35,040 nt of DNA from an uncultured bacterium (GTDB taxonomy: Bacteria; Actinomycetota; Actinomycetes; S36-B12; CAIKAW01), in assembly GCA_903825575.1 (NCBI GenBank), contig CAIKAW010000041.1, positions 1 through 35,040 on the forward strand, given 5' to 3'. Every line of letters starts with the position of its first letter. Position 1 is the stretch's first letter. The notes beneath the pieces were generated by a model. That model was given only the letters and a program-made list of their open reading frames with translations, was not told the DNA's origin and ran no database searches. A program made the position numbers and the translations under genes. Of the stretch, positions 658 to 15,272 are shown one piece after another.

Positions 658-2316
658 TCAGGGCTGGAAACTGCGCGAGTAGATCAAGCCGTCGCGGTCT
701 AACCAAATCACGCGTCCGGCCACAATCGGTCCGGCGCTGATACGTTCAGGCAACCATTCTTCAGCCCCCACCCGATAGACCCCCGGGGTCACTTCCACCA
801 GTTCGATCTCTGCGTCAGGTGCCTCGACACCGCCCGGAGCAGCAAGAAACAGTCGGCTGGCGCGCTCATACACGCGCAACGTCGGATACCACGGCGAATT
901 GCACCGATACTGGCCAGCAACCGATGGGGCCGCGGTCTGTTTCGGACGACCGGGTTCGAGCGTGTACCAATCGGGCCCATGGATCCAACCCGCCCCAGTT
1001 TGGTCGCGATCCAGATGAAAGCGGCGCAGCGCCGACACGTCGCTTACGTATCTCCCTTGAGGCGTGCGGAATAGTTTCCCTGCCACACCGTTGTGGGTGA
1101 GAACCACCGGTTCGCCGATTTCCGAGGTGGCTAGTTCGAACAAGTCACGGCTCGAGTGATACCGACCGGGAGCAACGTCGGGATCACCTGTGGCGACGGT
1201 CGGGTCAACTTCCGGGAACGGTGGCAGGGGCTGATTCTCAATCCTTGCAAGGAAATCAGCGTGCCCCAGGCGAGCTAGCTGTTGGGCTTGCAGGTTGTCC
1301 CCGTTCGCATTCGTCAACACGATGATCATCGCGCCAATAGTGCGATCGACAATGTGGAAGGTCGAATACCCGACCATTCCACCGCCATGGGTGAGTAGCG
1401 CATGACCGCCCGCCACTTCGGTATTCATTCCTAGCCCATACCTGCTCGCGGAGATCGTCGGCAACCCAGGAACATCGAGCGCAGGTTCGCCACCTGGGCC
1501 AAGTAGTTCGACAATTCGATGCGGCACCGGAGCCATTTGGGAACCATGCAGGAACAGGCCAAGGAACTTTGCCAGATCCTCAGCGGTAGCCCCGATGTTG
1601 CCGTCGCCGGTTGCACACTCAAACCAAGTGGCACGTGCCAGCGCATCCCCGGGTACCCACGGTCGGTCTTCGCGATCCGGGACATAGCCCTGGGCGTAGC
1701 GGTGGCGATCATCATTCGTGATCGCACCCGAAGATTCGCTCATCCCAAGTGGCGTAAGCACAAATTCCGAAACCAGTTCTGGCAATGACCTTCCGGTGAT
1801 CTCGGCAGCCAACCACCCAGCGAGTCCATAGCCAACATTGGAGTAGTGGAAGTGGGCGGTTGCCGGTGCGCTAGCCGGACTGTTACGCACCTTCCAAATC
1901 TGAGTCAACTCATCCGGCCAAGCATCGGCACCCATGATCAGACCGCCGCTGTGGTTCAGCAGTTGGCGCACTGTCACGCCGGCCGCGTCCGGGCCAAGAT
2001 TCACCCAAGGGAGCAGTTTGCAAACAGCGTCGTCCAAGCTGAAGAGTCCTTGCTCAGCCAGGTGTGCTACGACATATGCCGTGAAGGCCTTACTGATCGA
2101 ACCAATCTGGAAAACCCGATCAGCGCTCATGTCGATATTGCGCTCAAGGTCGGACTTTCCGAAAACGACCTGGGCAAGAACGCCATCAGCGTCAGCCAGT
2201 AGCAGTACGCCACCCGGAAGCGGCGTCCAAGCGCTCAACGTAAGCGCGTAATCGCGAAGTCTGCTTAGACTTTCGATCGCCGCTTTGGTAGCGATTTCGC
2301 GCTGCGAGGAGGTCAC
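658..2316 (-). CDS. Beta-lactamase-fold serine hydrolase (class C / D-aminopeptidase-esterase type)
   Basis: A 552-residue protein of the beta-lactamase/penicillin-binding-protein-like serine hydrolase family. All three active-site motifs are visible: S73-x-x-K76 (nucleophile and base), Y158-S-N160, and H310-G-G312 in the place of KTG. The catalytic domain ends near residue 370. About 180 further residues, predicted to be beta-rich, resemble the extra C-terminal domains of D-aminopeptidase-like members but I cannot name them. There is no signal peptide, so it probably acts in the cytoplasm on an imported substrate, for example a D-amino-acid amide/peptide or an ester. The GTG start overlaps the stop of the LysA-like gene upstream (GTGA), making this the last gene of the long transporter operon. 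The family is functionally broad, so peptidase, amidase and esterase are all possible. Confidence 0.88.
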   Translation of the reverse strand: MTSSQREIATKAAIESLSRLRDYALTLSAWTPLPGGVLLLADADGVLAQVVFGKSDLERNIDMSADRVFQIGSISKAFTAYVVAHLAEQGLFSLDDAVCKLLPWVNLGPDAAGVTVRQLLNHSGGLIMGADAWPDELTQIWKVRNSPASAPATAHFHYSNVGYGLAGWLAAEITGRSLPELVSEFVLTPLGMSESSGAITNDDRHRYAQGYVPDREDRPWVPGDALARATWFECATGDGNIGATAEDLAKFLGLFLHGSQMAPVPHRIVELLGPGGEPALDVPGLPTISASRYGLGMNTEVAGGHALLTHGGGMVGYSTFHIVDRTIGAMIIVLTNANGDNLQAQQLARLGHADFLARIENQPLPPFPEVDPTVATGDPDVAPGRYHSSRDLFELATSEIGEPVVLTHNGVAGKLFRTPQGRYVSDVSALRRFHLDRDQTGAGWIHGPDWYTLEPGRPKQTAAPSVAGQYRCNSPWYPTLRVYERASRLFLAAPGGVEAPDAEIELVEVTPGVYRVGAEEWLPERISAGPIVAGRVIWLDRDGLIYSRSFQP

Positions 2317-3587
2317 TGTGCCAGCACATCCCGCTGAACCAAGTCGGCCAAACTCTCTCGCCGAATAACCTCGCGCGCTATTCCGTCTGTGACTAATACG
2401 ACCGGCGGACGCAACGCCCCGTTGTAGTTGTTGGCCATCGTGTAGCAGTAGGCACCGGTGACCGGCACGGTTATGAGGTCCCCAACCTGAGGACTGGCCA
2501 GTTCAATGCCCTTGACCAAAGTGTCCCCTGATTCGCAGTGGCGGCCGACGACATCGCAGATCTCCGAAGACGCGGTCCGGTCGATGATGCTGGGTGCGAA
2601 GGCGGCCCCATAAAGGGACACCTCCAAGTTGTCACCCATACCGCCGTCAACCGCCACATGAGTACGCATGCCGCGCTTTACGGTGACCACTCGATACACA
2701 GTAACCCCGGCCCGGGCAATCATTGATCTACCTGGCTCGACCATGATGCGCACATCGGTACCAAGGTGTCGATGCACTGCAGTGACAACGTGGTCGGCAT
2801 ACTCGTCGACGCTAGGCACCTGATCGGTGCTCACGTAACGCTCGCCGAGCCCCCCGCCGAAGTCATATACCGGGAACCGCTCCAGCTTTGCCAACGAATC
2901 CACCGCGGCTTGGAACTGGGCAAGGTCAGCGATGCCCGAACCAATATGTGCGTGCAGTCCGCGCAGATTGAGCATTGGTTCACGCCGGATCCGCGCAATC
3001 ACATCGGCAATTTGCCCTGACGGGATACCGAATTTCGAGGCATCGTGACCGGTCATCATCGTTTCGTGCGTCGCAGCGTCGATCTGCGGACTTACGCGAA
3101 GCAGCACCGGTACTGGGGTATTTGCAAGGCGGGCAATCCGCTCGACGTCGTCGAGGTTGTCGACCACGATGTGGCCGACACCGGACGCGATGCCGGCTGT
3201 TATGTCGGCGTCAGACTTGGCGTTTCCGTGCAAGACCATGCGTCTCGGGTCTGCGCCGGCCAATTCTGCAATCGCCAATTCCTGCCAGGCTGCGACATCT
3301 ACGCCACAGCCTTCCTCCGCCAGTACCCGAACAATGCTGGCGGCGGGAAAGGATTTCGATGCAAATAGCACTTCACAATCGGCATGCCGAGAACGAAAGG
3401 CCGTCAGGTAGTCCCGCGCTCGCGCCCGCAGCGCACCTTCGTCAATCAAATACGCGGGTGTTCCGAATGAAGCAGCAAGTTCGGACACCGGGATTCCGCC
3501 AATAACTAGGGCGCCTTCGGCCGATATCGAAGTTCCGTCCGGGTACAGGCTCAGATCAATGGGCGGAGACAACTCGTCGGCTTGCAC
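2313..3587 (-). CDS. Diaminopimelate-decarboxylase-like PLP enzyme (fold type III)
   Basis: A 424-residue LysA-family protein with an alanine-racemase-like barrel. K78 in FASKSF is the PLP lysine; HGN, SKFG, HAHIGS and the glycine-rich GGGLGERY loop bind the cofactor phosphate; EPGRSM and the catalytic CESGD (C351, E352) are present. The start is taken as GTG at 3587, which has GGAGG six bases upstream and lies just past the preceding stop. A longer frame to 3680 would overlap the M20 gene by 73 bases with a non-conserved Arg-rich leader. The usual substrate-binding stretch NPRPALY reads NLEVSLY here, so the arginine is replaced by E322 while Y326 stays. That suggests the substrate is not plain meso-diaminopimelate. 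Being in a catabolic operon with a peptide importer, it probably decarboxylates a released amino acid, and is unlikely to be the housekeeping lysA. Confidence 0.87.
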   Translation of the reverse strand: MQADELSPPIDLSLYPDGTSISAEGALVIGGIPVSELAASFGTPAYLIDEGALRARARDYLTAFRSRHADCEVLFASKSFPAASIVRVLAEEGCGVDVAAWQELAIAELAGADPRRMVLHGNAKSDADITAGIASGVGHIVVDNLDDVERIARLANTPVPVLLRVSPQIDAATHETMMTGHDASKFGIPSGQIADVIARIRREPMLNLRGLHAHIGSGIADLAQFQAAVDSLAKLERFPVYDFGGGLGERYVSTDQVPSVDEYADHVVTAVHRHLGTDVRIMVEPGRSMIARAGVTVYRVVTVKRGMRTHVAVDGGMGDNLEVSLYGAAFAPSIIDRTASSEICDVVGRHCESGDTLVKGIELASPQVGDLITVPVTGAYCYTMANNYNGALRPPVVLVTDGIAREVIRRESLADLVQRDVLAQ

Positions 3588-3607: not shown

Positions 3608-4768
3608 TCAGCCGAGGTAATCGGCGATTGCGCCTACCAGCACGTCCACCAGACTTACCACCTCTGGGATCGAGACCCACTCATCGGGGGCATGAAAGTT
3701 TCCACCCAGCGGCCCGAGGAGCACAGTTGGGATCCCGGCATCCTGCAACAAGGCGGCGTCGGTCCAGGCGTTTAGCCCCTCTTGTTCCAGCTTTGTACCT
3801 AGGTGTAGTTGCGCGGCCCGATCCAAACTTGCGAGTAGCTGTTCGTGTCCCCGAGCGAGGAAGGGACTACGGTCTAGGCGCACTACAACATCGGTGGTTA
3901 GGCCTGGCAGGACCTCGCGGGTATGCGCCAAGATTGCTTCGATCTCGCGCACTCGATCAGCCAAGGTTTCTCCGGGCTGAGTGCCGATTTCAATCCCGAG
4001 GACGCATTCGCTGGGGTACGTCGCGTAGTCGGTGCCACCTCGGACCGTGCCGGTGTGAAAGACGGTGCGACCGTTGCGCGGCTCCGGTTCGATCGCAAAA
4101 TGCTCCAGATCCCAGGCGTGGAATCGCGAAAGGAATTCAGCTAAACCCACAATCGCATCGACACCTACGCCCGGAGCCGATCCGTGCGCGGCTTTCCCGT
4201 GGAACTCGACATCGATCCATCCGAATCCTTGGTGCTCGACCACCACCTTGGGCAGCGCGTCGGCTTCGATCACGATTGCCGCGTCAGCCTTGAGACTCTT
4301 CACGAGGACTTCACTACCCAACGACACGCCTTCTTCGTCTGCAACACATGCGATTATCAGATCACCACGCAAGCGAACGCCGGTTGCAATTAACGCTCGC
4401 AGTGCAAGCAGTGCAGCGGCGCAGCAGCCCTTGTCGTCGGCAGCCCCAAGCCCGTAGAGCCGATCTCCATCAAGCCGCGGCACTAATGCAGTGTCGACCC
4501 ATCCGGCATAACCCACAGTGTCCGCGTGCGCATTGATACAAAGTGTTGGACCGCCGCCGGTACCGCGCCAAGTGACCAGCAGATTGAAACGACCTGGAGC
4601 TATTTCGTCCTGAACTATCTCAACCGGTAAGTCGGCGCACCAGTCCGCTAGGAACGCGACCACTTCGCGCTCACCTGCTCCACCTTCCACCAGCCAAGGC
4701 GTGACCGATTCGATTCGCACCAAGTCACTGATGAAATCGATCACTTGTGCTGCGCTTACCGAACTCAC
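3608..4768 (-). CDS. M20-family metallopeptidase / amino-acid deacylase (ArgE/DapE/CPG2 type)
   Basis: A 386-residue dinuclear-zinc hydrolase. Motifs in order: H81-x-D83 in the first metal site, the bridging aspartate D111 in the ADDKG stretch, catalytic/metal-binding E145-E146, the dimerisation-domain stretch FHGKAAHGSAPG, and the C-terminal zinc histidine in GNFHAPDE. Members cleave N-acyl or peptide bonds of small amino-acid derivatives (acetylornithine, succinyl-DAP, dipeptides, carboxypeptidase G2 substrates). No signal peptide is seen, so it should act in the cytoplasm after import. GTG start, with GGAG upstream, overlaps the stop of the ATPase gene (GTGA). Its place between the peptide transporter and a decarboxylase suggests it releases the amino acid that the next enzyme uses. 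Exact substrate unknown. Confidence 0.9.
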   Translation of the reverse strand: MSSVSAAQVIDFISDLVRIESVTPWLVEGGAGEREVVAFLADWCADLPVEIVQDEIAPGRFNLLVTWRGTGGGPTLCINAHADTVGYAGWVDTALVPRLDGDRLYGLGAADDKGCCAAALLALRALIATGVRLRGDLIIACVADEEGVSLGSEVLVKSLKADAAIVIEADALPKVVVEHQGFGWIDVEFHGKAAHGSAPGVGVDAIVGLAEFLSRFHAWDLEHFAIEPEPRNGRTVFHTGTVRGGTDYATYPSECVLGIEIGTQPGETLADRVREIEAILAHTREVLPGLTTDVVVRLDRSPFLARGHEQLLASLDRAAQLHLGTKLEQEGLNAWTDAALLQDAGIPTVLLGPLGGNFHAPDEWVSIPEVVSLVDVLVGAIADYLG

Positions 4769-5751
4769 TGGTTCTCCTCAACAAAGTGACAGGCTGACTG
4801 ATGGCCAACCAGCGTCGTTGCAGTTTCGGTGAGCACTGGATCCACTTCCCGACACTGACTTGGTTCATTTAAGAGCCGATATTTTGGGCACCGCGGATGG
4901 AAGCGGCAGCCCGTGGGAATCGCCGCCGCTGACGGAGTCTCCCCGGGAAGGGTTCGATGGCCGTCGCCGCGGGTAACCTCTAGCAGCGCTTGGGTATACG
5001 GGTGCCGCGGGGCTGCCACCAACTCGGCCGCTGATCCGATTTCGACGATGCGGCCTAGGTACACCACAGCGATCCGGTCAGCCAACACCCAAGCGACCGA
5101 CAGGTCGTGGGTGATGAACAGGTAGGAAATACCCAACCGGTCACGCAGGTCGACCATGAGAGAGAGGATCCCGGCGCGGGCAGATACATCGAGCATGGAC
5201 ACGGGCTCATCTGCAACAACTAGGTCTGGGCGCAGCACAACCGCGGCGGCGATCGCAACTCGCTGGCGCTGGCCCCCTGATAGTTCGTGTGGGTACCGCT
5301 GTGCGAGTCGCTCCGGAGGCAACAACTGCGCAAACTCAAGTGCCTCAAGGACTCGGGTGCGGCGCTCCTCCGCTGGCACTCCATGTATTACCAAGGGTTC
5401 TACAACTGTTTCGTAGACGGTCTGGCGCGGATCTAGGGAACCAAACGGGTCCTGGAAGATCATTTGAAAGCGACGTCGAGCCCGACGCAGCGCCGACCCA
5501 TTAACCGTCGCTAAGTCCACTCCGCCGGAAGCGATTCGACCCGCCGTCGGCGCGACTAGCCGCATGATCGCAGCGGCGATGGTCGATTTGCCGCAGCCTG
5601 ATTCGCCCACCAACGCAAGGATCTCGCCCTTGGCTATCGCGAAAGAAACGCCATCGACCGCACGCACCAGACTCTTGGCCTGGCCACTAGAGCGCCGACC
5701 AGGGAAGTACACCTTCAGATCGCTTACCTCAACGACGGATTCGACCGTCAC
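4765..5751 (-). CDS. Peptide-type ABC transporter ATP-binding protein (OppF/DppF type)
   Basis: A 328-residue ATPase subunit that powers the importer encoded by the following minus-strand genes. Walker A GESGCGKS at residues 49-56, signature LSGGQRQRV, Walker B LVVADEP, and the C-terminal oligopeptide-transporter extension with paired cysteines (GCRFHPRCP) are all present. The open frame extends upstream to 5835, but GTG at 5751 is chosen because it makes a 4-base GTGA overlap with the OppD-type gene and because homology begins there; the extra leader would be an Arg/Cys-rich out-of-frame shadow of the OppD C-terminus. Works as a heterodimer with the OppD-type ATPase. Confidence 0.92.
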   Translation of the reverse strand: MTVESVVEVSDLKVYFPGRRSSGQAKSLVRAVDGVSFAIAKGEILALVGESGCGKSTIAAAIMRLVAPTAGRIASGGVDLATVNGSALRRARRRFQMIFQDPFGSLDPRQTVYETVVEPLVIHGVPAEERRTRVLEALEFAQLLPPERLAQRYPHELSGGQRQRVAIAAAVVLRPDLVVADEPVSMLDVSARAGILSLMVDLRDRLGISYLFITHDLSVAWVLADRIAVVYLGRIVEIGSAAELVAAPRHPYTQALLEVTRGDGHRTLPGETPSAAAIPTGCRFHPRCPKYRLLNEPSQCREVDPVLTETATTLVGHQSACHFVEENQ

Positions 5752-6734
5752 GTGACATCGCCTCCGACAAGATGACAAGCAGCCAGGTGTGCAGTCCCGG
5801 CCACTGGTCGAAGGGTCGGAGCCACCTCGTGGCAAATCGATTCACGCACCGAGCACCGATCGTAGAACCGACAACCTTTGATCGGGATCGAAAGATCAGG
5901 CGGATGCCCAGGCAAAGCCTGCGCCAAGACCCGCTCGCCGGCTAGATCGGGGTGGGCTTTGATCAGCGCTTGGGTGTAGGGGTGTGCCGCGGTGCGCTGT
6001 TCAGTACCCCTACCAAGGATGACTGCAGTTGGCCCCGTTTCGACAACAACGCCGGCGTACATCACGACGACGCGATCACACGTTCGTCGGATGGCGGCAA
6101 GATCATGGGAAATCAGAAGCAATCCGAGCTGCTGCTCGCGCTGAAGATCACCAAGCAGCGACAGGATCTGCGATTGGCTGATGACATCGAGTGCCGTTGT
6201 GGGCTCATCGGCAATCAGAAGTGACGGTCGACAGGCTAGGGCCATTGCAATCATCACACGTTGGCGCATTCCGCCTGAGAACTCATGCGGGAAACTGCGA
6301 GCTCGGCTCGGAGAGACGCCGACGAGCTCAAGCAACTGTGACACTCGCTCTTTGGCGGCCGTCGAAGCGGTGTTCGGTTCATGAGTTCGGATTGGTTCGA
6401 GGATTTGTCTATCGATCCGGTGTACCGGATTCAGCGCATTCATTGCGCCCTGGAAGATGAACGAAACCTTGGTCCAGCGCAGTTCATTTAGGTCGTCCTC
6501 GCTGCGCCCAATCATCTCCTCGCCGAGCAACTGAACGCTCCCAGTCGGAGTCGCATTCGCCGGTAGCAGGCCCGGTACCGCCAGACCCAAAGTCGTCTTG
6601 CCACACCCAGATTCGCCCGCGATTCCAACGGCCTCACCGGCAGCGACACTGATGCTGACTTGGTCCACCGCCCGCAAGGAATCAGCGCCAACTGTGTAGT
6701 CCACGCAAAGGTCTTTGATCTCTAGCAAAGTCAC
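5748..6734 (-). CDS. Peptide-type ABC transporter ATP-binding protein (OppD/DppD type)
   Basis: A 328-residue ATPase. Walker A GESGCGKT at residues 40-47, signature FSGGMRQRV, Walker B LLIADEP and the C-terminal oligo_HPY-like extension (GCRFYDRC) are seen. GTG start overlaps the stop of the permease gene by 4 bases, and its own stop overlaps the OppF-type start in the same way, so translation of the ABC genes is probably coupled. Partner of the OppF-type ATPase in an importer of peptides or peptide-like conjugates; nickel and some sugars are also carried by this family, so family alone does not prove a peptide substrate. Confidence 0.92.
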
Positions 6735-7645
6735 CGTGCACCACGCGACTGTGGGTTGAGGATGCGATCAAGGCTGTGGCCCACCAATGAGAATCCGAGC
6801 ACCAGGATCACGATGCCGATTCCTGGGGGGAGCACGTACCACCAAGCACCACGACTCATGGCGCCGGAAGTGAATGCGAAATGAAGCATCGTGCCCCAAG
6901 ACACATGAACGGGATCACCCAGGCCAAGGAAAGCCAGACTGGCTTCGGAAAGAATTGCACCGGCCAAGACCAAGACCAAATTGGCAAAGATCAAGGGCGA
7001 AACGTTAGGAAAGATGTGCACCCAGATCGTGCGTCGGTCTGTGGCCCCAAGAGATCTCACGCGGAGCACAAGCGGGCGTTCCCGCAGTGACAGCACTTGC
7101 GATCGGATGATTCGCGTGGTCTGCGGCCAACTCGTAAGCCCGATGACCAGACTCGTGATCACCACGCTCTGACCAAGCAGCGCAGCTAAAGCGATGATCA
7201 ACGGCAGAGTTGGCAAGACAAGGAAGAAGTCCGTGATTCGCATCAGCACGTTGTCGCGCCACCCGGCGTAGTAGCCAGAAACCAGCCCCAGTCCAGCGCC
7301 AACGACCATCGCGATCGCAGTTGCCGATAGCCCAACTAGAAGCGAGATCTGACCACCTACGAGCACCTGCCGGAAGACGTCACGACCAAGTTCGTCCGTG
7401 CCGAGCCAATGCCCACCGGAAGGTGGCTGCAGGATCGAATTGGCCGACAAGCCAAAAGACGACGCTGCAAACGGGAAGATCATCGGTCCGACGACCACGA
7501 GGGCAAGGACGACGATGACCAGCACGAGACCGACCCGTCCCATGCGGTCGCCCCAGACAGCACGCCACCACGGGATGCGGCTGCTCGGTTGCAATGTGTC
7601 TTCTCCCGGTTCCACCGGAAGACCAGGACGCTCGTCGAGGCTCAT
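6731..7645 (-). CDS. Peptide-type ABC transporter permease (OppC/DppC type)
   Basis: A 304-residue inner-membrane permease. After a hydrophilic N-terminus of about 30 residues there is a first membrane segment, a periplasm-side region containing GTDELGRDVF (typical of DppC proteins), then about five further membrane segments. The EAA loop that docks to the ATPases is visible as EASLAFLGLG near residue 235. ATG start overlaps the preceding permease stop (ATGA). Confidence 0.92.
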   Translation of the reverse strand: MSLDERPGLPVEPGEDTLQPSSRIPWWRAVWGDRMGRVGLVLVIVVLALVVVGPMIFPFAASSFGLSANSILQPPSGGHWLGTDELGRDVFRQVLVGGQISLLVGLSATAIAMVVGAGLGLVSGYYAGWRDNVLMRITDFFLVLPTLPLIIALAALLGQSVVITSLVIGLTSWPQTTRIIRSQVLSLRERPLVLRVRSLGATDRRTIWVHIFPNVSPLIFANLVLVLAGAILSEASLAFLGLGDPVHVSWGTMLHFAFTSGAMSRGAWWYVLPPGIGIVILVLGFSLVGHSLDRILNPQSRGAR

Positions 7646-8610
7646 GACTGCCTCACCCGTGGATCCAGCGCTCGATACAGCAGATCACTTGCAAAGTTCA
7701 TGATGATTACGGCCACAGCAAAAATTAGGAACGATGCCTCAAGAACCGGATAGTCACGACTGAGCACTGCCTTGTACGAGAGCAAACCCATCCCGGGCCA
7801 TGAGAACACCGCCTCAACTTGGATGGCGCCGCCAAGCACGAGGCCCATGTACAGCGCAGTCGCCGTAACAATTGGCAGAAGCGCGTTGCGGACGCCGTGG
7901 CGCCAAACGATAACTCTGCGCCGCAACCCTTTCGCGCGAGCAGTCACCATGTAGTCCTCGGACATGACATCAACCAGCGAACTACGGGTGATAAGCGCGA
8001 ACTCAGCTACGTTTACTAGCGCCAACGTCAAGGTAGGCAAAATGAGGTGTTTGCCCAGGTCGACAAGATGCCCCAACGAGGTGAACGAATACCCAAGCGT
8101 ATTGATCCCGGAAATCGGAAGCAGATGGAACCAAACTCCACAGATGAAGATCAAGATCATGCCGGTCCAGAAAGTCGGAAGACTCCAAAGCACCAGACTA
8201 CTCACGACCACCGAAGTATCAGTGCGCGAATTGGCTCTGGCGCCTGCGATTACACCGAGCCCTACACCCACCACGATCGTTAGCAACGTGGCCGTCCCGA
8301 GCAACAAGATGGTGTTCCGGATGGCTGGACCCAACACGGTGGTTACTGGCTGTCGATATACGTACGAGAAACCAAGGTTGCCCTGAATTAGGTCCCGTAG
8401 GTAAATCAGGTACTGAATCGGCAGCGATCGGTCCAGCCCGAACAACTGCTTCAACTGCGCGACCGCGGCCGGATCCAAGTGTCCTGCTCGAGCCATCAAA
8501 CGAACCGGATTGCCCGGCAACACGTGGAACAGCAGAAAATTGAACGTCGCGACGGCGTACAAGGTCACCGCAAGAGAGAAGACCTTGCGCGCTAGATAGC
8601 GAACGCTCAT
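7642..8610 (-). CDS. Peptide-type ABC transporter permease (OppB/DppB type)
   Basis: A 322-residue permease with the N-terminal membrane segment followed by the short conserved FHVLPGNP stretch of DppB-type proteins, then about five membrane segments and the C-terminal EAA region (EAVFSWPGMG). It pairs with the DppC-type permease to form the pore. The ATG start at 8610 lies 27 bases after the stop of the binding-protein gene. No strong ribosome-binding site is seen, so expression probably relies on read-through from upstream. Confidence 0.92.
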   Translation of the reverse strand: MSVRYLARKVFSLAVTLYAVATFNFLLFHVLPGNPVRLMARAGHLDPAAVAQLKQLFGLDRSLPIQYLIYLRDLIQGNLGFSYVYRQPVTTVLGPAIRNTILLLGTATLLTIVVGVGLGVIAGARANSRTDTSVVVSSLVLWSLPTFWTGMILIFICGVWFHLLPISGINTLGYSFTSLGHLVDLGKHLILPTLTLALVNVAEFALITRSSLVDVMSEDYMVTARAKGLRRRVIVWRHGVRNALLPIVTATALYMGLVLGGAIQVEAVFSWPGMGLLSYKAVLSRDYPVLEASFLIFAVAVIIMNFASDLLYRALDPRVRQS

Positions 8611-8637: not shown

Positions 8638-10311
8638 TTAGACCGGGGTCACGCCGAGATAGTTGCTCCGCGTGAAGTTGAAGACCATTCCTCCTGGGAT
8701 GGATACCCAGCCTTTCCAGGTGTCGGTCCGGTAGGCCTGCAACTTGCTTTGGTACCACATCACCAAGTACGCGCACTCGTCGTAGTACATGCGCTGCATC
8801 TGCTGGACAAGCGCTAAACGGGCGGCCGCATCGACGGTCGTCGCCTGTTGTTCGTAAAGTCCGTCATAGGTGGTGTTTGAGTAGTAGACGTCATTGTTGT
8901 TGCCAATCTGACTGGTCAGCGGCACACCAAGGAGGTAGTCGGGGTCCGGAGTGCTCGAGTCCCAGCCCCAGACGAACAAGTCCCAGTTAGGGGCGGCAGC
9001 GTTGTACACCACGTTGCCCATCGTCGTCTCATCAACAGTCTGCAAAGTGAGTTTGATTCCAACCGATGCGGCTGCGCTCACAAACAGCTGGGCTGCTCGA
9101 ACGTCAACATCCGTGGCCTGGATTGCGATCAAGCGGAAACTCAACCGCTTGCCGCCCGGACTGACTCGCATGCCATCAGATCCCTTGCGGTAGCCGGCAG
9201 CATCAAGAAGCGCGTTGCCCTTGGCGACATTGGCATTGAGTTGTTCAGCTGCCGGAATTTGCAGCTGCAGCTCACCAAATGCGGCCGGAAGAAGCACGCT
9301 GCCTGGAAGGCCATGGCCAGCCAAGGCTAATTGCACCAACTGTGATCGATCTAGGCTGCAACTAAGGGCTTGGCGCACGTTCTTATCCAGCAGCAACTTG
9401 TTACCCCCGGACTTCGGGTCGTTCGAGACGTTGATTCCGATGTGGTGGAAGGAGTACGACTCCATCTCGATGGGCTTGACGTTCGCTGAGGACTTCAGGC
9501 CGTCCCAGAGAAGTGGCGGGACCTCCGTCAGGACATCGACATCGCCGGCCACCAGGCTCTGCGTCATGACGTCAGCGCTATCAAAGTGCACCCAAGTCAG
9601 TGCTGAGGCAGATGGTGCGGTACCCCACCACTTCTCGTTGCGAGCAACCGAGACGTACTGCCCGGGCTTCCATTCGGTGAACGTGTAAGGTCCGGTGCCA
9701 ACGGGCTTGGCGTTGGGGTCCTTCTGGATTGCATCCGCACTCATGGTTGACCAGATGTGCTTTGGCACGATCGGAATGATCAACGCAGGATCGAAAGCTT
9801 GCGGACGCTTGAATGCCGCAACCACTGTCGACGGATCGGTCACCGTGACCGAAACTAGGTCGGCTAGATACTGCGCGGCTTGCCCCAAGTTGTTCTTCGA
9901 GATCGTGTCCCACGAGAACTTAACGTCGTCGGCCGAAAATGGTGTGCCATCGTGCCAGGTGACGCCGCTGCGCAACTTGTAGGTGATGGACTTCTGGTCG
10001 GTGCTGTAAGTACCTTCGGTGGCAAGTCCGGGGACGGCATTGCGGTCTGGACCATAGCTGAGCAGCGTGTCGTAGACCAGGGCGATGATCTCGCTAGCCG
10101 CTGAACTCGTGAACGTGAACGGATTCAAGATGTCTGGCTCCGAGGTCCAGCCAACGCGCAGCGTTCCGGTTTTGGCACCGGCGCTCGTCGACGCGGTCGG
10201 TTTGCCCGCCAAGCTTGAGCAACCATCAAGCAGCAATGGGGTAGCCAACACGCCGGCTGTGGCCGCCGTCAGGTTCAGGAACCGCCGCCGAGTTAACCCA
10301 AAATCACGCAC
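8638..10311 (-). CDS. Family 5 (peptide-type) solute-binding protein, predicted Tat lipoprotein
   Basis: Extracytoplasmic binding protein of the OppA/DppA type: SBP_bac_5 features include the N-terminal EPDILNPFTF region, a WHDGTPFSADDVKFSW stretch and the PVGTGPYTFTEW stretch. The leader has a twin-arginine motif (TRRRFLNL) and ends in LLDGC, giving a lipid-modified Cys31 if the GTG at 10311 is used. That GTG has AAAGGA seven bases upstream. An in-frame ATG at 10377 lies just past the kinase stop but has only a distant GGGAG, and would give an unusually long leader (579 residues in all). Asp at -2 of the lipobox is unusual. It follows a kinase and precedes its permeases, and should set the substrate specificity of the whole pathway. 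Confidence 0.88.
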   Translation of the reverse strand: MRDFGLTRRRFLNLTAATAGVLATPLLLDGCSSLAGKPTASTSAGAKTGTLRVGWTSEPDILNPFTFTSSAASEIIALVYDTLLSYGPDRNAVPGLATEGTYSTDQKSITYKLRSGVTWHDGTPFSADDVKFSWDTISKNNLGQAAQYLADLVSVTVTDPSTVVAAFKRPQAFDPALIIPIVPKHIWSTMSADAIQKDPNAKPVGTGPYTFTEWKPGQYVSVARNEKWWGTAPSASALTWVHFDSADVMTQSLVAGDVDVLTEVPPLLWDGLKSSANVKPIEMESYSFHHIGINVSNDPKSGGNKLLLDKNVRQALSCSLDRSQLVQLALAGHGLPGSVLLPAAFGELQLQIPAAEQLNANVAKGNALLDAAGYRKGSDGMRVSPGGKRLSFRLIAIQATDVDVRAAQLFVSAAASVGIKLTLQTVDETTMGNVVYNAAAPNWDLFVWGWDSSTPDPDYLLGVPLTSQIGNNNDVYYSNTTYDGLYEQQATTVDAAARLALVQQMQRMYYDECAYLVMWYQSKLQAYRTDTWKGWVSIPGGMVFNFTRSNYLGVTPV

Positions 10312-10384
10312 AACGAGTTCCTTTCCATCGGATCGCGGCTGCGACCGTCCATTATTTGGCCCACCAGACGTGTTCATATCAGTA

Positions 10385-11872
10385 TCAGCGCTCCCGTTCC
10401 CGACTCGGTACTGCGTTGGCAAAACTCTGCACCTGACTCAATGTTCGGTTGTGCCGCGCGGTCGCCAGATCCCACGGGACACGATCACCGGGTGATATCA
10501 CTAACTCTTCAACCGCAATTGGTTCAAGAACGAGCCCCAGACTTGCGGCGGCGACCATTGCCGCACCCCGCGCTGAGTGTTCGGTGACCGAGGTCGACGT
10601 CACGGTGCGGCCGGTGGAGCTTGCTAGCGCCCTTTGGAAAGACAGGTCGGAGGCACTCGACCCGGCAATCCGGATCGGACCGCTGCCTCCAGCCACTTCA
10701 GCCAGCACATCCAGACAACGTCGACTCTCGAGGACCAGACCAACGACCAATGCGGCCGAAATCTCGGCGCGTCCGTGGTGCAAACCAAGTCCACTGAGAG
10801 TGCCGGTCAGTTCCGGATCCCACAACGCACCTTGCTCGCCCGGGGCAAGGTAAGGCAAGAAGACCGGAACATCCATCGGGTCGACAACCAGACCAAGTTC
10901 TACGATTTCCGGTGCCGTTATGCCGAAGAGGTCAGCCAACCAAGTCAGCGCGCTTCCGGTTGTGAGCAAATCCATCTCCAAGCCCCAGCCATCACCTAAT
11001 GCCAGCGGAGTAACCAAATACCGATGTGATGGATCTACGTGGAGGTGGTCAGAGACACCAAGAATGACAGTGCTAGTCCCGGCAACATAGGCAACTTCCC
11101 CTGGTGAAGTGACGCCGAGTGCAAGGGCTGCCGATACCGAATCGGCCGACCCGAGCACTACGGGGAGCCCGACTGGCAGGTCGAGCATCGCCGCAGCGCG
11201 CGGCGAGAGAGGCGACTGCTGCGTAGTCGCCCGCACCTGCGGAAGTTGCGGCAGCGGGCGACCAGTCCGCAACGCCGTTACCGCCAACACGTCGGCCAGC
11301 CACTCCCCCGACGCCAGCCCAAAGCAGCCGAACCCCGTGGCCGTGCTGGGGTCGGTGAATCTAACGCCGGTCAACCACCAGTAGATGTAGTCGCGGGCGC
11401 CAAGCAACCACGCTGTGTTGTCGGCGCGAGTCGGGTCGACCTCGACGATCCGTTCCCACATTGGCAACAGGTAACGCCCGTCGAGCCACTGCCCGGTGCG
11501 CTCATACAGCCAATCCGAACCGACTGCTTGGCGCAGCGCCGCACCCTGCGCTTCGGCCCGAGCGTCTTCCCACGTCAGCGCCGGTCCGACCGGCTCGCCG
11601 TCGGCATTCGTCGTGACCAGCGTCGGGATCATTCCCGACAGCCCGAGGCTGAGCCATTGGGCGGTGGGCAACTGTGACCGCAGATCGGCAAGCGCAGAGG
11701 CTAGAGCCGTCAACCATTGGCTCGGGTCTTGTTCGGCCGCGCCAGGCTCCGGTCGACTGGTCGGATATCCGACTTGGCACTGTCCGACCACGTCGCCGCG
11801 AAGATCAACCGCAACAGCTTTCAGTCCCGATGTGCCAAGGTCAACGCCTAGCAACAACTGCAGCCCGGTCAC
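10385..11872 (-). CDS. FGGY-family carbohydrate kinase (xylulokinase-like)
   Basis: A 495-residue two-domain sugar kinase. The N-terminal phosphate loop GVDLGTSGLKA holds D11, a W-E-D-x-R stretch lies at 101-105, and D244 in GSADSVSA aligns with the catalytic base of xylulokinase. The C-terminal ATP-binding half has IAGSSASDL and RGAAMVAA. Known members phosphorylate ketoses, polyols and AI-2, usually at a terminal hydroxyl. Here the gene lies in a peptide-transporter operon with a double-SIS gene opposite, so a ketosamine or other amino-sugar conjugate is a reasonable candidate substrate; this is inference. GTG start overlaps the regulator stop (GTGA). Confidence 0.9.
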   Translation of the reverse strand: MTGLQLLLGVDLGTSGLKAVAVDLRGDVVGQCQVGYPTSRPEPGAAEQDPSQWLTALASALADLRSQLPTAQWLSLGLSGMIPTLVTTNADGEPVGPALTWEDARAEAQGAALRQAVGSDWLYERTGQWLDGRYLLPMWERIVEVDPTRADNTAWLLGARDYIYWWLTGVRFTDPSTATGFGCFGLASGEWLADVLAVTALRTGRPLPQLPQVRATTQQSPLSPRAAAMLDLPVGLPVVLGSADSVSAALALGVTSPGEVAYVAGTSTVILGVSDHLHVDPSHRYLVTPLALGDGWGLEMDLLTTGSALTWLADLFGITAPEIVELGLVVDPMDVPVFLPYLAPGEQGALWDPELTGTLSGLGLHHGRAEISAALVVGLVLESRRCLDVLAEVAGGSGPIRIAGSSASDLSFQRALASSTGRTVTSTSVTEHSARGAAMVAAASLGLVLEPIAVEELVISPGDRVPWDLATARHNRTLSQVQSFANAVPSRERER

Positions 11873-12729
11873 GATTTACGCCGTCCGGGCGACGATTCCA
11901 GAGGTACCGCGTTCCAGTCGCCACCGACCCCACCGGGATGCAGTCGCCGCTGTGTCTGGCCAGCGATGGCAAATGCGAAATCGGCTGCCGGATATACCTG
12001 TTCGAAACAGTCGAAAGCGATACCGCGCTTGTCTCGGCTTACCCCACGGATCCGAACCACCTGTGCGTGGGCCGTCAGCCGGAGCAGGGTCCGAGCTTCC
12101 GAAGTCGGATTCACTACCTCAAGAATCTGCTCCTCGAAATCGTCTTCGATCCCGTAAAGCTCGTTGAGCGTTTCATAGAGCGAGCCAGTTGAGTAGGCGC
12201 GATCTAGCCCGGGCGCGAGCGCCACGGGAATTACGGCTCGCTCAATGATCGATGGCTTCCCATCGAGCAATCGAATCCGCCGGACCGCCCAAACGTGATC
12301 GAACTCGGCTAGGCCTAGCGCCTCTGCGATATCAGCAGTGGGCAAACAGCGTTCAATGCCCAGTAGCTGGCTACCGACTCGGGCGCTGGCAGTTGCGTCG
12401 AGCGTACTTCCAAGTTGCCCCACTCGGCCGGGGTCGCTAAGGATCTTCGGTCGAGCTAGGAACGTGCCAAGTCCCTGGTGGCGACGAATTCGGCCCTCAC
12501 GCTCAAGTTCTTCCAAAGCGCGGCGCACGGTGATCAAACTGACTTTCGCCGACTTAGCCAATTCGCCTTGACTCGGCAACATGTCGCCGGGCCCAAGTTG
12601 GCGTTCGATGATGATGCGGTCGATCAGATCAATGACTTCCTCGTACAACAACTTCGACCGACGCGTCCGCCCGGCTATGGGCCGCACCGGCTCGCGTGGG
12701 AACCGACCACCAAGCGGAATGACGGTCAC
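11869..12729 (-). CDS. GntR-family transcriptional regulator with UTRA domain (HutC/NagR/FrlR type)
   Basis: A 286-residue regulator. Residues about 28-95 form the winged helix (LPSQGELAKSAKVSLITVRRAL-like pattern, then GLGTFLA), followed by a UTRA ligand-binding domain (about 105-265) that in relatives binds phosphorylated sugars or amino-acid derivatives. An N-terminal stretch of about 25 residues precedes the helix-turn-helix. GTG start with GGGAG five bases upstream, 30 bases after the aminotransferase stop. As an internal gene of the operon it is the natural local regulator, most likely a repressor released by the pathway substrate or a phosphorylated intermediate. The palindromes at 14165-14182 are its most likely target. 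Confidence 0.92.
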   Translation of the reverse strand: MTVIPLGGRFPREPVRPIAGRTRRSKLLYEEVIDLIDRIIIERQLGPGDMLPSQGELAKSAKVSLITVRRALEELEREGRIRRHQGLGTFLARPKILSDPGRVGQLGSTLDATASARVGSQLLGIERCLPTADIAEALGLAEFDHVWAVRRIRLLDGKPSIIERAVIPVALAPGLDRAYSTGSLYETLNELYGIEDDFEEQILEVVNPTSEARTLLRLTAHAQVVRIRGVSRDKRGIAFDCFEQVYPAADFAFAIAGQTQRRLHPGGVGGDWNAVPLESSPGRRKS

Positions 12730-12759: not shown

Positions 12760-14115
12760 CTAGCTCGCTTTCGCTTCGTCGGAGATGACGTCGAGTGCGG
12801 CGGCCGCAGCAACGAGGGTTTGATCGATGTCTTCATCGGTGTGCACGAGCGAGACAAAGAGGTTCTCGAACTGCAGTGGGTGGAACAGCACTCCCCGCAA
12901 AATCATTTCTTCGAACCAGCGCGTGAAGCGCGCCTCGTTTGCGTATTGCTCGGCCTCTCGCCAATTTGTGATCTTGTGGTCAGAGAACCACAGCTGGAAC
13001 ACGGTGCCAAGACCTTCGACGGCGGCGGGGATGCCTGCAGCGGCAGTCAGGCTGCGCAAGCCTTCGGCTAAGCGATCCCCGAGTGCCCGCTGCCGCTCAT
13101 AGAGTCCTGGCTCTGCAAGTACGTCCATGGTCGCCGAAACTGCCGCGCACGCCACGACATTCGCGTTGTAGGTGCCCGAATGCGAGTACTTACCTTCGGC
13201 GATCATTCGCATCGCCTCGCGGGTGCCACCTATCGCCGCAACCGGGAATCCGCCGCCCAGCCCCTTGGCTAGCGTGGTCAGATCTGGCATGACTCCGAAC
13301 CACTCCTGTGCACCACCTCTTGCGAAACGGAAACCTGTGATCACTTCGTCAAAGATCAGCATTGCGCCGTATTTTGTGGCCAACTCGCGCAGCAATTCCA
13401 GGTAGCCAGGTTCCGGCAAGATGCAGCCGGTGTTGAATACGGCGGCCTCGGTAAGGATGGCAGCAACTTCGCTGCCCCGTTCAGACATCACCCGCTTAAT
13501 GCTCTCCGGATCGTTCCAAGTCAGCACAATGAGAGTGTCGGCCAGCTCCAGTGGAACGCCCGGGCCGGCAGCTACCGGACGCGGATGATCAGCAGGACCG
13601 GCCTTGGCCGGGTCGACGTGATTGCTCCAATAAACCGTGTCCTGCCAACCGTGATAGTGGCCTTCAAAGCGGATCACGATCCGCCGACCAGTGGTGGCGC
13701 GCGCCAGTCGGACCGCAGTGCCGACGGCTTCGCTGCCCGAGTTCGTAAATCTGACTTGCTCGATGCTCGGCACCGCCTCGACGACCTTCTCGGCTGCTTC
13801 AACCTCAAGTTTGTAGGGCAGCCCGAAGCACGTTCCATACTCGCCAATGGCGTCGGCGACCGCCTTGGTAACGACGGGGTGACGGTGGCCCAAGATCATT
13901 GGCCCAAGCCCGAGGAGGTAATCGATGTACTCGTTGCCGTCCACATCTCGCACGCGCGATCCCCGACCCTCGGCCAAGAAGGGCGGGTAGGGCGACCAGC
14001 CGAACCCGACTGTTCGCGCGCTGCTTCCCGCGCCAGCTGGGATCGTCTTGCTTGCCCGCTGGAATAGCGCTGCTGAGGTCGGAGTCTTGGCCGCGTAGCG
14101 CTCAACGAACGTCAT
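12760..14115 (-). CDS. Class III PLP aminotransferase, HemL (glutamate-1-semialdehyde aminomutase)-like
   Basis: A 451-residue class III aminotransferase. The cofactor lysine is K284 in TLAKGLGGGFP, preceded by the metal-free PLP motifs LIFDEVITGFR and FTNSGSEA; GHYHGW is also present. It resembles HemL-like proteins, but the setting as first gene of a catabolic operon makes a tetrapyrrole role unlikely; an omega-transaminase or aminomutase acting on an amino sugar or amine is more plausible. ATG start with GGGGAAAGG 11 bases upstream. The promoter should lie in the 98-bp region shared with the divergent SIS gene. Confidence 0.9.
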   Translation of the reverse strand: MTFVERYAAKTPTSAALFQRASKTIPAGAGSSARTVGFGWSPYPPFLAEGRGSRVRDVDGNEYIDYLLGLGPMILGHRHPVVTKAVADAIGEYGTCFGLPYKLEVEAAEKVVEAVPSIEQVRFTNSGSEAVGTAVRLARATTGRRIVIRFEGHYHGWQDTVYWSNHVDPAKAGPADHPRPVAAGPGVPLELADTLIVLTWNDPESIKRVMSERGSEVAAILTEAAVFNTGCILPEPGYLELLRELATKYGAMLIFDEVITGFRFARGGAQEWFGVMPDLTTLAKGLGGGFPVAAIGGTREAMRMIAEGKYSHSGTYNANVVACAAVSATMDVLAEPGLYERQRALGDRLAEGLRSLTAAAGIPAAVEGLGTVFQLWFSDHKITNWREAEQYANEARFTRWFEEMILRGVLFHPLQFENLFVSLVHTDEDIDQTLVAAAAALDVISDEAKAS

Positions 14116-14164
14116 TACTTGACTGCCTTTCCCCAGGGGACCCGTACTGGGCCACTCATCATGC

Positions 14165-14182
14165 TAGGTATGTTTCCTATAC
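14165..14182. promoter_or_regulatory. Overlapping palindromes between the aminotransferase and SIS genes; candidate GntR operator
   Basis: Two 15-bp interrupted palindromes overlap: TAGG-N7-CCTA at 14165-14179 and GTAT-N7-ATAC at 14168-14182. A -10-like TATACA (14178-14183) for the plus-strand SIS gene lies within or beside the second. The site is in the only sizeable intergenic gap of the locus and would let one regulator control both divergent units. Binding by the GntR/UTRA protein is inferred. Confidence 0.45.
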
Positions 14183-14213
14183 AATGCTGGCCTGTCAAGC
14201 AGAAGGGCTCGCC

Positions 14214-15272
14214 GTGACGCCATCGCGCTCCTGGCTGGAGTCCGAGATCCGCTCTCAGCCCGAAATACTGGCCACCCGGCTGGCCGGTCAGGCTGCGAAC
14301 ACAAAACTGGCCCACCATTTGCTGCGGCGCCCAGATGTGACCCATGCGGTCATCGCCGCTCGTGGGTCCTCCGACAATGCGGCCAGATATGCCCAGTACC
14401 TGTTTGGCAAAACCCTTGGGCTCAGTACCTATCTGGGCGCCCCGTCCCTATTTACCCAACCGACTCCGCCCTCGCTCACAGGAGCCGCGGTGCTCGCAAT
14501 CTCCCAGTCCGGACAGTCTCCGGATGTGGTCAGCGTCCTTGCCGCTGCCCGCCTGCAGGGTCGCCCAACCATCGCAATCACAAACGACCCCCACAGTCCA
14601 CTTGCCGCCGTCGCCGACGTGGTGATCGATCTGGCCACCGGGCCAGAACTTTCGCTGGCTGCCACCAAGACCTTCACCGCCTCGCTGCAGGCGATCATTG
14701 CAATCGCCGCCGAAGTTGGCGACCAAGAGCTGAGTCAGGGTCTGGCTGCTCTGCCGGCTGCCCTCGACAAGGTCATCGAGCAAGGACTCGAAGAGTTGAA
14801 TCCCGGCCTAGCCACGGCACCGAATCACCCTTTTGATTTCCTAACTACCGTCGGACGGGCCACTGGGTTTGCTGCTGCCTCCGAGACGGCTTTGAAAATT
14901 CGCGAGGTAGCCGGACTGCGTGCCGAGGCATACGCCGTACCCGATTTACTCCACGGACCGATCGCAGCAAACGGACCCGGATCTTCGGCTTGGCTGATCG
15001 CCTCTCCTAGCCAGTCGCCTGAGTATTGGACGCACATCGTCGACCGGCTCACGGCCGCCGGAGTCGCCGTGACAGCGATAGTGCCCGGCCCCAGCCAACT
15101 TCGCGCCGATTTGGTTCACCAACTGCCCGCTGGTCTGGACTCGTCGCCTGCCTGGCTGTTCGATTTCCTGGCTGTCGCCTACGGCCAGATTGCTGCGCTA
15201 CGACTAGGGCTAGCTGCCGGACGTGACGTTGACCATCCGCAAGGGCTGGCGAAGGTCACCCTGACGAGTTGA
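14214..15272 (+). CDS. Double-SIS-domain protein, sugar isomerase/deaminase or deglycase (GlmS C-terminal / FrlB-like)
   Basis: A 352-residue protein with two SIS domains, the usual length for NagB-II-type glucosamine-6-phosphate deaminases and FrlB/AgaS-like enzymes. First domain: ARGSSDNAA (about residues 46-54) and ISQSGQSPD binding the sugar phosphate. Second domain: ETALKIREVAGLRAEAY and LLHGPIA, then the conserved C-terminal DHPQGLAKVT. It lacks the glutamine amidotransferase domain of GlmS. GTG at 14214 is chosen, with AGAAGGG upstream and a -10-like TATACA 30 bases upstream. The frame is open to 13899 but that part lies over the divergent gene, and an ATG at 14184 has no ribosome-binding site and falls in the promoter. 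It probably acts on the phosphorylated product of the FGGY kinase, cleaving or isomerising an amino-sugar phosphate. Confidence 0.88.
   Translation: MTPSRSWLESEIRSQPEILATRLAGQAANTKLAHHLLRRPDVTHAVIAARGSSDNAARYAQYLFGKTLGLSTYLGAPSLFTQPTPPSLTGAAVLAISQSGQSPDVVSVLAAARLQGRPTIAITNDPHSPLAAVADVVIDLATGPELSLAATKTFTASLQAIIAIAAEVGDQELSQGLAALPAALDKVIEQGLEELNPGLATAPNHPFDFLTTVGRATGFAAASETALKIREVAGLRAEAYAVPDLLHGPIAANGPGSSAWLIASPSQSPEYWTHIVDRLTAAGVAVTAIVPGPSQLRADLVHQLPAGLDSSPAWLFDFLAVAYGQIAALRLGLAAGRDVDHPQGLAKVTLTS

What the first reader, a model, noticed from the sequence alone, without database searches (positions are those of the whole stretch)
2610..2624. Substrate-binding arginine of diaminopimelate decarboxylase replaced by glutamate
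The family stretch NPRPALY reads NLEVSLY (E322, Y326). In mycobacterial LysA the Arg of this stretch (Arg344 by recall) contributes to substrate binding, while PLP lysine, CESGD and the other motifs are intact here. An acidic residue at this place suggests a different, perhaps positively charged or neutral, substrate group. It fits the operon idea that this is a catabolic decarboxylase.
Basis: partly seen in the sequence, partly recalled or inferred. Interest (0 to 1): 0.5.

Follow-up and report, generated by a model that had tools for sequence, protein, structure and literature searches.

The report
Uncharacterised LysA look-alike decarboxylase clade
A bacterial gene that looks like the last enzyme of lysine synthesis carries an acidic residue where that enzyme needs a positive charge; the swap defines a whole uncharacterised sister family of enzymes that probably remove the carboxyl group from imported, positively charged (perhaps mirror-image) amino acids instead.

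Summary
In the LysA-like protein at 2313-3587(-), E322 (2622-2624) sits exactly where M. tuberculosis LysA has R344 and Thermotoga LysA R285, the specificity-helix arginine that holds the distal carboxylate of DAP; the PLP lysine, EPGR, CESGD and Y326 are kept. It is not an oddity of this protein: it marks a clade. Glu/Asp was found in 95 of 95 paralogues and Arg in 36 of 36 actinobacterial LysA sequences; the tree needs one change (SH-aLRT 97), and this is the only column with complete charge reversal. The host genome also has an ordinary Arg-type LysA. NCBIfam's lysA equivalog model still accepts the protein, so this clade is probably misannotated. Neighbours are catabolic (peptide or amino-acid importers, PucR regulators, D-peptidase-like and N-acyl-D-amino-acid-deacylase-like hydrolases) and were absent around 20 of 20 Arg-type LysA genes. 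Best reading: a non-DAP decarboxylase whose E322 + E352 bind a cationic side chain, as the helix acids of L/ODC and ADC do; D-stereochemistry is inferred. The exact substrate is unknown, and the conserved FGGY kinase and aminomutase-like PLP enzyme of the window operon are not explained by plain D-Lys/D-Orn/D-Arg.

The parts
2313..3587 (-). E-type LysA paralogue (424 aa, GTG start), fold-III PLP decarboxylase
   Evidence: PF02784 + PF00278; TIGR01048 377.7 bits (cut-off 297.9); AlphaFold pLDDT 91.8; best structural matches are DAP decarboxylases (4xg1 Z 47.9, 1hkw Z 46.1)
2610..2639 (-). specificity helix, residues 317-326 (MGDNLEVSLY)
   Evidence: helix 317-326 in the model; column = MtLysA 339-348
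2622..2624 (-). E322, in place of the DAP distal-carboxylate arginine (MtLysA R344, Tm R285)
   Evidence: role of Tm R285 from PMC8277567
2727..2729 (-). R287 of EPGR (= Mt R303, Tm R249), retained
   Evidence: R in 83 of 83 E-type and 27 of 27 R-type rows
2523..2537 (-). C351-E352-S353-G354-D355; E352 = Tm E315, the ligand of the distal amino group
   Evidence: PMC8277567
3354..3356 (-). K78, PLP lysine
658..2316 (-). S12 / class-C beta-lactamase-fold hydrolase, D-aminopeptidase-like; overlaps the decarboxylase stop by 4 bases
   Evidence: PF00144; best PDB match alkaline D-peptidase 4y7p
3608..4768 (-). M20 peptidase/deacylase (ArgE/DapE family)
4765..5835 (-). peptide ABC importer ATPase (DppF-like)
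5748..6734 (-). peptide ABC importer ATPase (DppD-like)
   Evidence: translation (ABC ATPase motifs read from the sequence; not run against families); conserved with the operon
6731..7645 (-). peptide ABC importer permease (DppC-like)
7642..8610 (-). peptide ABC importer permease (DppB-like)
   Evidence: order and conservation
8638..10422 (-). SBP_bac_5 substrate-binding protein (ORF as listed; true start probably downstream of 10422)
10385..11872 (-). FGGY carbohydrate kinase
11869..12729 (-). GntR-UTRA regulator
12760..14115 (-). class-III PLP enzyme resembling glutamate-1-semialdehyde aminomutase, mostly 76-81% identical in operons of the same type (55% in L009)
13899..15272 (+). SIS-domain protein, NagB-II-like (domain starts near residue 110); divergent

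Best explanation
The gene belongs to an actinobacterial sister clade of LysA that no longer decarboxylates DAP. It keeps fold, PLP site, catalytic Cys and the acid that grips a distal amino group (E352). On the specificity helix it has replaced the arginine that grips DAP's distal carboxylate by Glu/Asp (E322). [quoted passage not shown] So the enzyme most likely decarboxylates an imported amino acid with a cationic side chain and, by inheritance from LysA and from its neighbours, probably at a D-centre (D-Lys, D-Orn, D-Arg or a derivative), as a catabolic step. Shown: substitution, clade, co-existence with LysA in the same genome, context. Inferred: cation binding, D-stereochemistry, identity of the substrate.
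For: E322 aligned on Mt R344 / Tm R285 / Mj R343; roles of R285, R249 and E315 in PMC8277567. Helix Asp in L/ODC D314, ADC D480 and CASDC D272 against R343 in DAPDC, and an acid next to the Cys (PMC7857480 section 8). Acid in 95 of 95 and Arg in 36 of 36; sole complete charge reversal; one change on the tree, SH-aLRT 97. In a class-wide draw of 296 genomes, 15 carry an E-type gene and all 15 have a second LysA match; the acid was read in 15 of 15 and Arg in the second copy for the 7 of 15 fetched. Neighbours: of 80 E-type loci S12 10, N-acyl-D-aa-deacylase-like 4, D-Ser-dehydratase-like 4, peptide ABC 23, APC permease 20, PucR 16; in 12 E-type loci of the class-wide draw PucR 6, ABC 6, APC 2; in 20 R-type loci none of these. 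Polar-amino-acid ABC operons follow the gene in L162 and L165, the binding protein's best amino-acid family being lysine/arginine/ornithine (below cut-off).
Against: No activity was measured. R287 is kept and might hold a carboxylate alone, though it is kept in DokD too. PMC8277567 found no D-lysine activity with TmDAPDC or any E315 mutant. Y326 is Thr, Phe or Val in other E-type rows, so the clade may hold several specificities. FGGY kinase, aminomutase-like enzyme and SIS protein are not needed for D-Lys/D-Orn/D-Arg catabolism. D-amino-acid-type neighbours are a minority and S12 is absent from the 12 class-draw loci. The neighbour queries were taken from E-type loci, so the R-type zero is partly built in.
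Confidence: 0.5

Rival explanations
1. Substrate is a sugar-linked or hydroxylated amino acid. In the window operon type the decarboxylase, FGGY kinase and class-III PLP enzyme form one route: peptide or conjugate uptake, peptidase release, decarboxylation to a hydroxy-amine, phosphorylation, then PLP-dependent removal or shift of the amine, with the SIS protein handling a phospho-amino-sugar. E322 then hydrogen-bonds hydroxyls or an amine.
For: aminomutase-like gene, FGGY kinase and decarboxylase adjacent in many loci (mostly 76-81% identity for the aminomutase-like protein); GSAM in 15 and FGGY in 13 of 80 E-type loci, 0 of 20 R-type; NagB-II-like SIS protein next to it in the window and in L083/L166; a xylulokinase-like FGGY gene also follows the L165 operon
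Against: most E-type loci have neither kinase nor aminomutase (67 of 80 lack FGGY within 6 kb, flanks full on both sides in 56 of 80); no kinase substrate is known
Confidence: 0.2
2. It is still a DAP decarboxylase (redundant or catabolic); R287 and E352 suffice for DAP.
For: passes the NCBIfam lysA equivalog cut-off; R287 and E352 kept; DAP catabolism through LysA is known in marine bacteria (PMC9602339, passages); peptide import and peptidases would also suit cell-wall peptides
Against: charge reversal fixed across the clade; canonical LysA present beside it in the same genome
Confidence: 0.12
3. E322 is structural: it pairs with an arginine gained in the same clade (R250, Mt position 262: Arg 90 of 95 E-type, Arg 2 of 36 R-type) and the substrate has a neutral side chain.
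For: clade-specific gain of R250
Against: R250 sits after the GGG phosphate loop; proximity to E322 could not be measured; many other positions differ between the clades too
Confidence: 0.1
4. A basic-amino-acid decarboxylase acting on the L-enantiomer (L-Lys, L-Orn or L-Arg), as ODC and ADC do.
For: APC permease, Usp or a fold-I OKR decarboxylase adjacent in several loci
Against: closest relatives are D-centre enzymes; D-peptidase-like, N-acyl-D-amino-acid-deacylase-like and D-Ser-dehydratase-like genes lie next to some members
Confidence: 0.08

Closest known systems
meso-Diaminopimelate decarboxylase LysA (MtLysA 1HKV, T. maritima 2YXX)
   Same: fold (Z 44-48), PLP site, EPGR, CESGD; 41% identity to the LysA of its own genome
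   Different: specificity-helix Arg that binds the distal carboxylate is Glu/Asp; extra gene beside canonical LysA; catabolic neighbourhood
D-ornithine/D-lysine decarboxylase DokD (Salmonella, 6N2H; NCBIfam NF052544)
   Same: fold III; D-basic amino acids as substrates (predicted here, measured there); an Asp may occupy the same helix column (posterior about 0.53, or lower)
   Different: 26% identity in the structural alignment; 135.6 bits against a cut-off of 700; CDGGD instead of CESGD; separate branch of the tree
L/ODC and biosynthetic arginine decarboxylase
   Same: acid on the specificity helix plus acid next to the catalytic Cys (PMC7857480)
   Different: L-enantiomer substrates; remote in sequence (PRK05354 arginine decarboxylase model 50 bits, cut-off 369)
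Engineered TmDAPDC E315X D-amino-acid decarboxylases (PMC8277567)
   Same: distal-site change reshapes D-amino-acid specificity of a LysA
   Different: engineered at the amino-binding Glu (E315); here the natural change is at the carboxylate-binding Arg (R285)

Membership tests
meso-DAP decarboxylase (LysA) | fold-III PLP decarboxylase with Lys-PLP, GGG, EPGR, C-E-SGD | tested here: met
meso-DAP decarboxylase (LysA) | specificity-helix Arg for the distal L-carboxylate | tested here: not met
   E322; Glu/Asp in 95 of 95 clade members, Arg in 36 of 36 LysA
meso-DAP decarboxylase (LysA) | NCBIfam TIGR01048 equivalog cut-off | tested here: met
   377.7 against 297.9 bits; the model does not exclude this clade member
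meso-DAP decarboxylase (LysA) | turnover of meso-DAP to L-lysine | not testable with these tools
   needs protein
DokD D-Orn/D-Lys decarboxylase | NF052544 cut-off 700 bits | tested here: not met
   135.6 bits, 130.4
DokD D-Orn/D-Lys decarboxylase | acid at the R344 column | tested here: inconclusive
   hhalign places DokD D355 (L124 numbering from the trimmed start) on Mt R344 with posterior 0.53, on E. coli R307 with 0.53, on E322 with 0.19, and elsewhere with an E-only profile
DokD D-Orn/D-Lys decarboxylase | activity on D-Orn/D-Lys | not testable with these tools
   needs protein
basic-amino-acid decarboxylases of the alanine-racemase fold (working arrangement) | acid on the specificity helix and acid after the catalytic Cys | tested here: met
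   E322 in helix 317-326, E352 after C351; rule from PMC7857480 section 8
L-arginine / carboxynorspermidine decarboxylases | NCBIfam cut-offs (arginine decarboxylase models 369 and 624, NspC 409) | tested here: not met
   50.4, 49.6 and 35.1 bits

The most novel reading that the evidence does not exclude
The window operon type encodes an undescribed catabolic pathway: peptide-ABC uptake, D-peptidase/M20 release, decarboxylation by the E-type enzyme, phosphorylation by an FGGY kinase and amine removal or 1,2-shift by an aminomutase-like PLP enzyme, for a cationic, hydroxylated or sugar-bearing D-amino acid. The E-type clade as a whole would then be a second natural origin of D-amino-acid decarboxylases, independent of DokD.
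Probability: 0.2. Interest if true: 0.75.

Novelty: new variant of a known kind. Interest (0 to 1): 0.5.

Why it matters
A paralogue clade spread over Mycobacterium, Streptomyces, Microbacteriaceae and candidate Nanopelagicales carries a reversed charge at the residue that recognises DAP, yet the window member passes the standard lysA model, so the lysA label on it is probably wrong and may distort pathway reconstructions. If the prediction holds, it gives a natural route to D-selective decarboxylases of basic amino acids (DokD is the only one met in these searches) and a one-residue rule that can be tested directly. The conserved operon also offers a concrete unknown pathway to solve.

Tried and rejected
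Tried without gain: literature searches for a characterised member or for the pathway (listings and starts of abstracts seen) showed none, but the library lacks most subscription papers and I never searched by accession. The E. coli SpeA alignment to the LysA profile was too weak in the C-terminal part to place its helix Asp. MAFFT placed DokD wrongly at the helix (where it shows a spurious Glu; the 86 Glu include that row), so hhalign was used and its result is called inconclusive. The mycobacterial context with MalQ, TetR and SDR genes (L013 type) says nothing on function. No dimer was modelled.

Considered and rejected: sequencing error or frameshift (open frame, clade-wide trait); pseudo-enzyme (all catalytic residues kept); arginine moved elsewhere (no substitute Arg in that stretch; R287 is conserved in both clades and R250 is noted as a rival); membership in DokD (score far below cut-off).

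Rows dropped: L060 (broken frame) before counting and tree; 64 of 95 E-type rows used in the tree; EcLysA and DokD left out of the group counts. The 27 R-type rows come from genomes of the window's own order and share ancestry; 9 more R-type rows (Mt plus 8) are.

Full report
What is there. On the minus strand at 2313-3587 lies a 424-aa fold-III PLP decarboxylase. The same output, read with PMC8277567 (outline, abstract and passages), identifies the column in T. maritima as R285, which with R249 salt-bridges the distal carboxylate of DAP, while E315 holds the distal amino group. R249 and E315 correspond to R287 and E352 here and are kept. In PMC7857480 (passages and section 8) the same column is Mj R343: the 434-residue 1TWI chain is numbered from 15 and the motif Arg is index 329. 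That section sets R343 against the aspartates that bind basic substrates on the same specificity helix: D314 in L/ODC, D480 in ADC, D272 in CASDC.

It is a clade, not an accident. After adding 20 stretches chosen from a class-wide draw the count is 85 Glu + 10 Asp of 95 E-type and 36 of 36 Arg. Column 344 is the only one in the alignment where charge is completely reversed. A maximum-likelihood tree of 102 rows (64 E-type) makes the E-type one side of a branch, SH-aLRT 97, with one change from Arg to acid (quick method, no bootstrap). The window protein falls in a 14-row subclade (95) with Mycobacterium yunnanensis, M. neoaurum, an Acidobacteria MAG and an Acidocella MAG, the last two suggesting transfer or binning error.

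It is additional to LysA. The window's genome has a second, Arg-type copy (contig C81, L002). In 296 class genomes, 15 have an E-type gene (389 bits or more; the next match is 310 bits) and all 15 show a second match. The acid was read in all 15, and Arg in the second copy for the 7 I fetched or already held. NCBIfam's lysA equivalog accepts the window protein at 377.7 bits, cut-off 297.9, so routine annotation will probably call it lysA.

Surroundings. The window operon (all minus strand) runs: aminomutase-like class-III PLP enzyme, GntR, FGGY kinase, peptide-binding protein, two permeases, two ATPases, M20 peptidase, the decarboxylase, S12 hydrolase; a NagB-II-like SIS gene is divergent. Much of it recurs: the PLP enzyme at mostly 76-81% identity, FGGY kinase and decarboxylase adjacent in Mycobacterium and other genomes. 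Across 80 E-type loci, within 6 kb: peptide/ABC 23, APC permease 20, PucR 16, PLP enzyme 15, FGGY 13, S12 10, M20 7, OKR 7, M17 5, N-acyl-D-aa-deacylase-like 4, D-Ser-dehydratase-like 4 (flanks full in 56). In 12 class-draw E-type loci: PucR 6, ABC 6, APC 2, S12 0. In 20 R-type LysA loci, picked by me from the listed matches: none of these. The queries came from E-type loci, so the contrast is partly built in; even so, LysA genes sit elsewhere. In Agromyces (L010) the gene lies between a PucR regulator and an S12 hydrolase, with an N-acyl-D-aa-deacylase-like amidohydrolase and a D-Ser-dehydratase-like protein. The name N-acyl-D-amino-acid deacylase for the Amidohydro_3 / PRK09061 matches is recalled; the models themselves say only amidohydrolase family. 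In L162 and L165 the gene heads a polar-amino-acid ABC operon whose binding protein matches the lysine/arginine/ornithine subfamily at 124-125 bits, below the cut-off of 256; in L165 a serine/threonine kinase StpK7 model scores higher for the same protein. These are family names, not tested functions.

How it most likely works. The PLP aldimine forms at K78, the catalytic Cys is C351, and decarboxylation proceeds as in LysA (inherited, not tested). [quoted passage not shown] Such a pocket should favour an ammonium or guanidinium group and disfavour DAP. LysA acts on the D-centre of DAP (PMC8277567), and several neighbours are D-amino-acid-type enzymes, so a D-basic amino acid is the first candidate. 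DokD, the known D-Orn/D-Lys decarboxylase, may have an Asp in the same column, but the alignment posterior is only about 0.5 at best. DokD accepts D-arginine slowly (PMC13294871, passages). The AlphaFold monomer (pLDDT 91.8) has residues 317-326 as a helix, and its best structural matches are DAP decarboxylases, then DokD (Z 41-44).

What does not fit. The FGGY kinase, SIS protein and aminomutase-like enzyme have no place in catabolism of plain D-Lys, D-Orn or D-Arg. In the window-type operons the substrate may carry hydroxyls or a sugar. Position 326 varies (Tyr, Thr, Phe, Val), so the clade may be heterogeneous. R250 was gained together with E322 and could be its partner. PMC8277567 reports no D-lysine activity for TmDAPDC or its E315 mutants, so acting on D-Lys is not a small step from LysA.

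Verdict. Observation confirmed; interpretation partly supported and widened: an uncharacterised, probably misannotated LysA sister clade with a reversed distal-site charge. No characterised member turned up in the paper searches, which cover open-licence papers only.

Noticed in passing
window 12760-14115(-): Class-III PLP enzyme close to glutamate-1-semialdehyde aminomutase (passes NF000818 cut-off, fails TIGR00713), conserved mostly at 76-81% in operons of this type, higher than the decarboxylase itself; the genome's next homologue is only 39% identical. Function unknown.
   Followed up: partly
window 10385-11872(-); L165 5012-6541(-): An FGGY kinase recurs beside E-type decarboxylases, also in the otherwise different L165 operon (xylulokinase-like, 371 bits, cut-off 380).
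   Followed up: partly
L047 6750-8249; 7 of 80 E-type loci: A fold-I Orn/Lys/Arg decarboxylase-like protein lies near the fold-III E-type enzyme.
   Followed up: no
L015, L024, L072: An operon like the window's (S12, M20, Dpp; 60-76% identity except S12) lies divergent from a gene followed by another E-type decarboxylase; in L015 that gene is D-Ser-dehydratase/BhcC-like.
   Followed up: partly
G592: L143 and L144: A genome with two Arg-type copies, one (L144, NPRPALY) on a long branch of its own: a further LysA-like lineage.
   Followed up: no
window 10385-10422: The listed ORF of the peptide-binding protein (TTG at 10422) overlaps the end of the FGGY gene by 38 bases; its true start is probably downstream.
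   Followed up: no
window 13899-15272(+): SIS-domain protein resembling NagB-II glucosamine-6-phosphate deaminase, divergent from the operon; an SIS gene is also next to the decarboxylase in L083/L166.
   Followed up: partly
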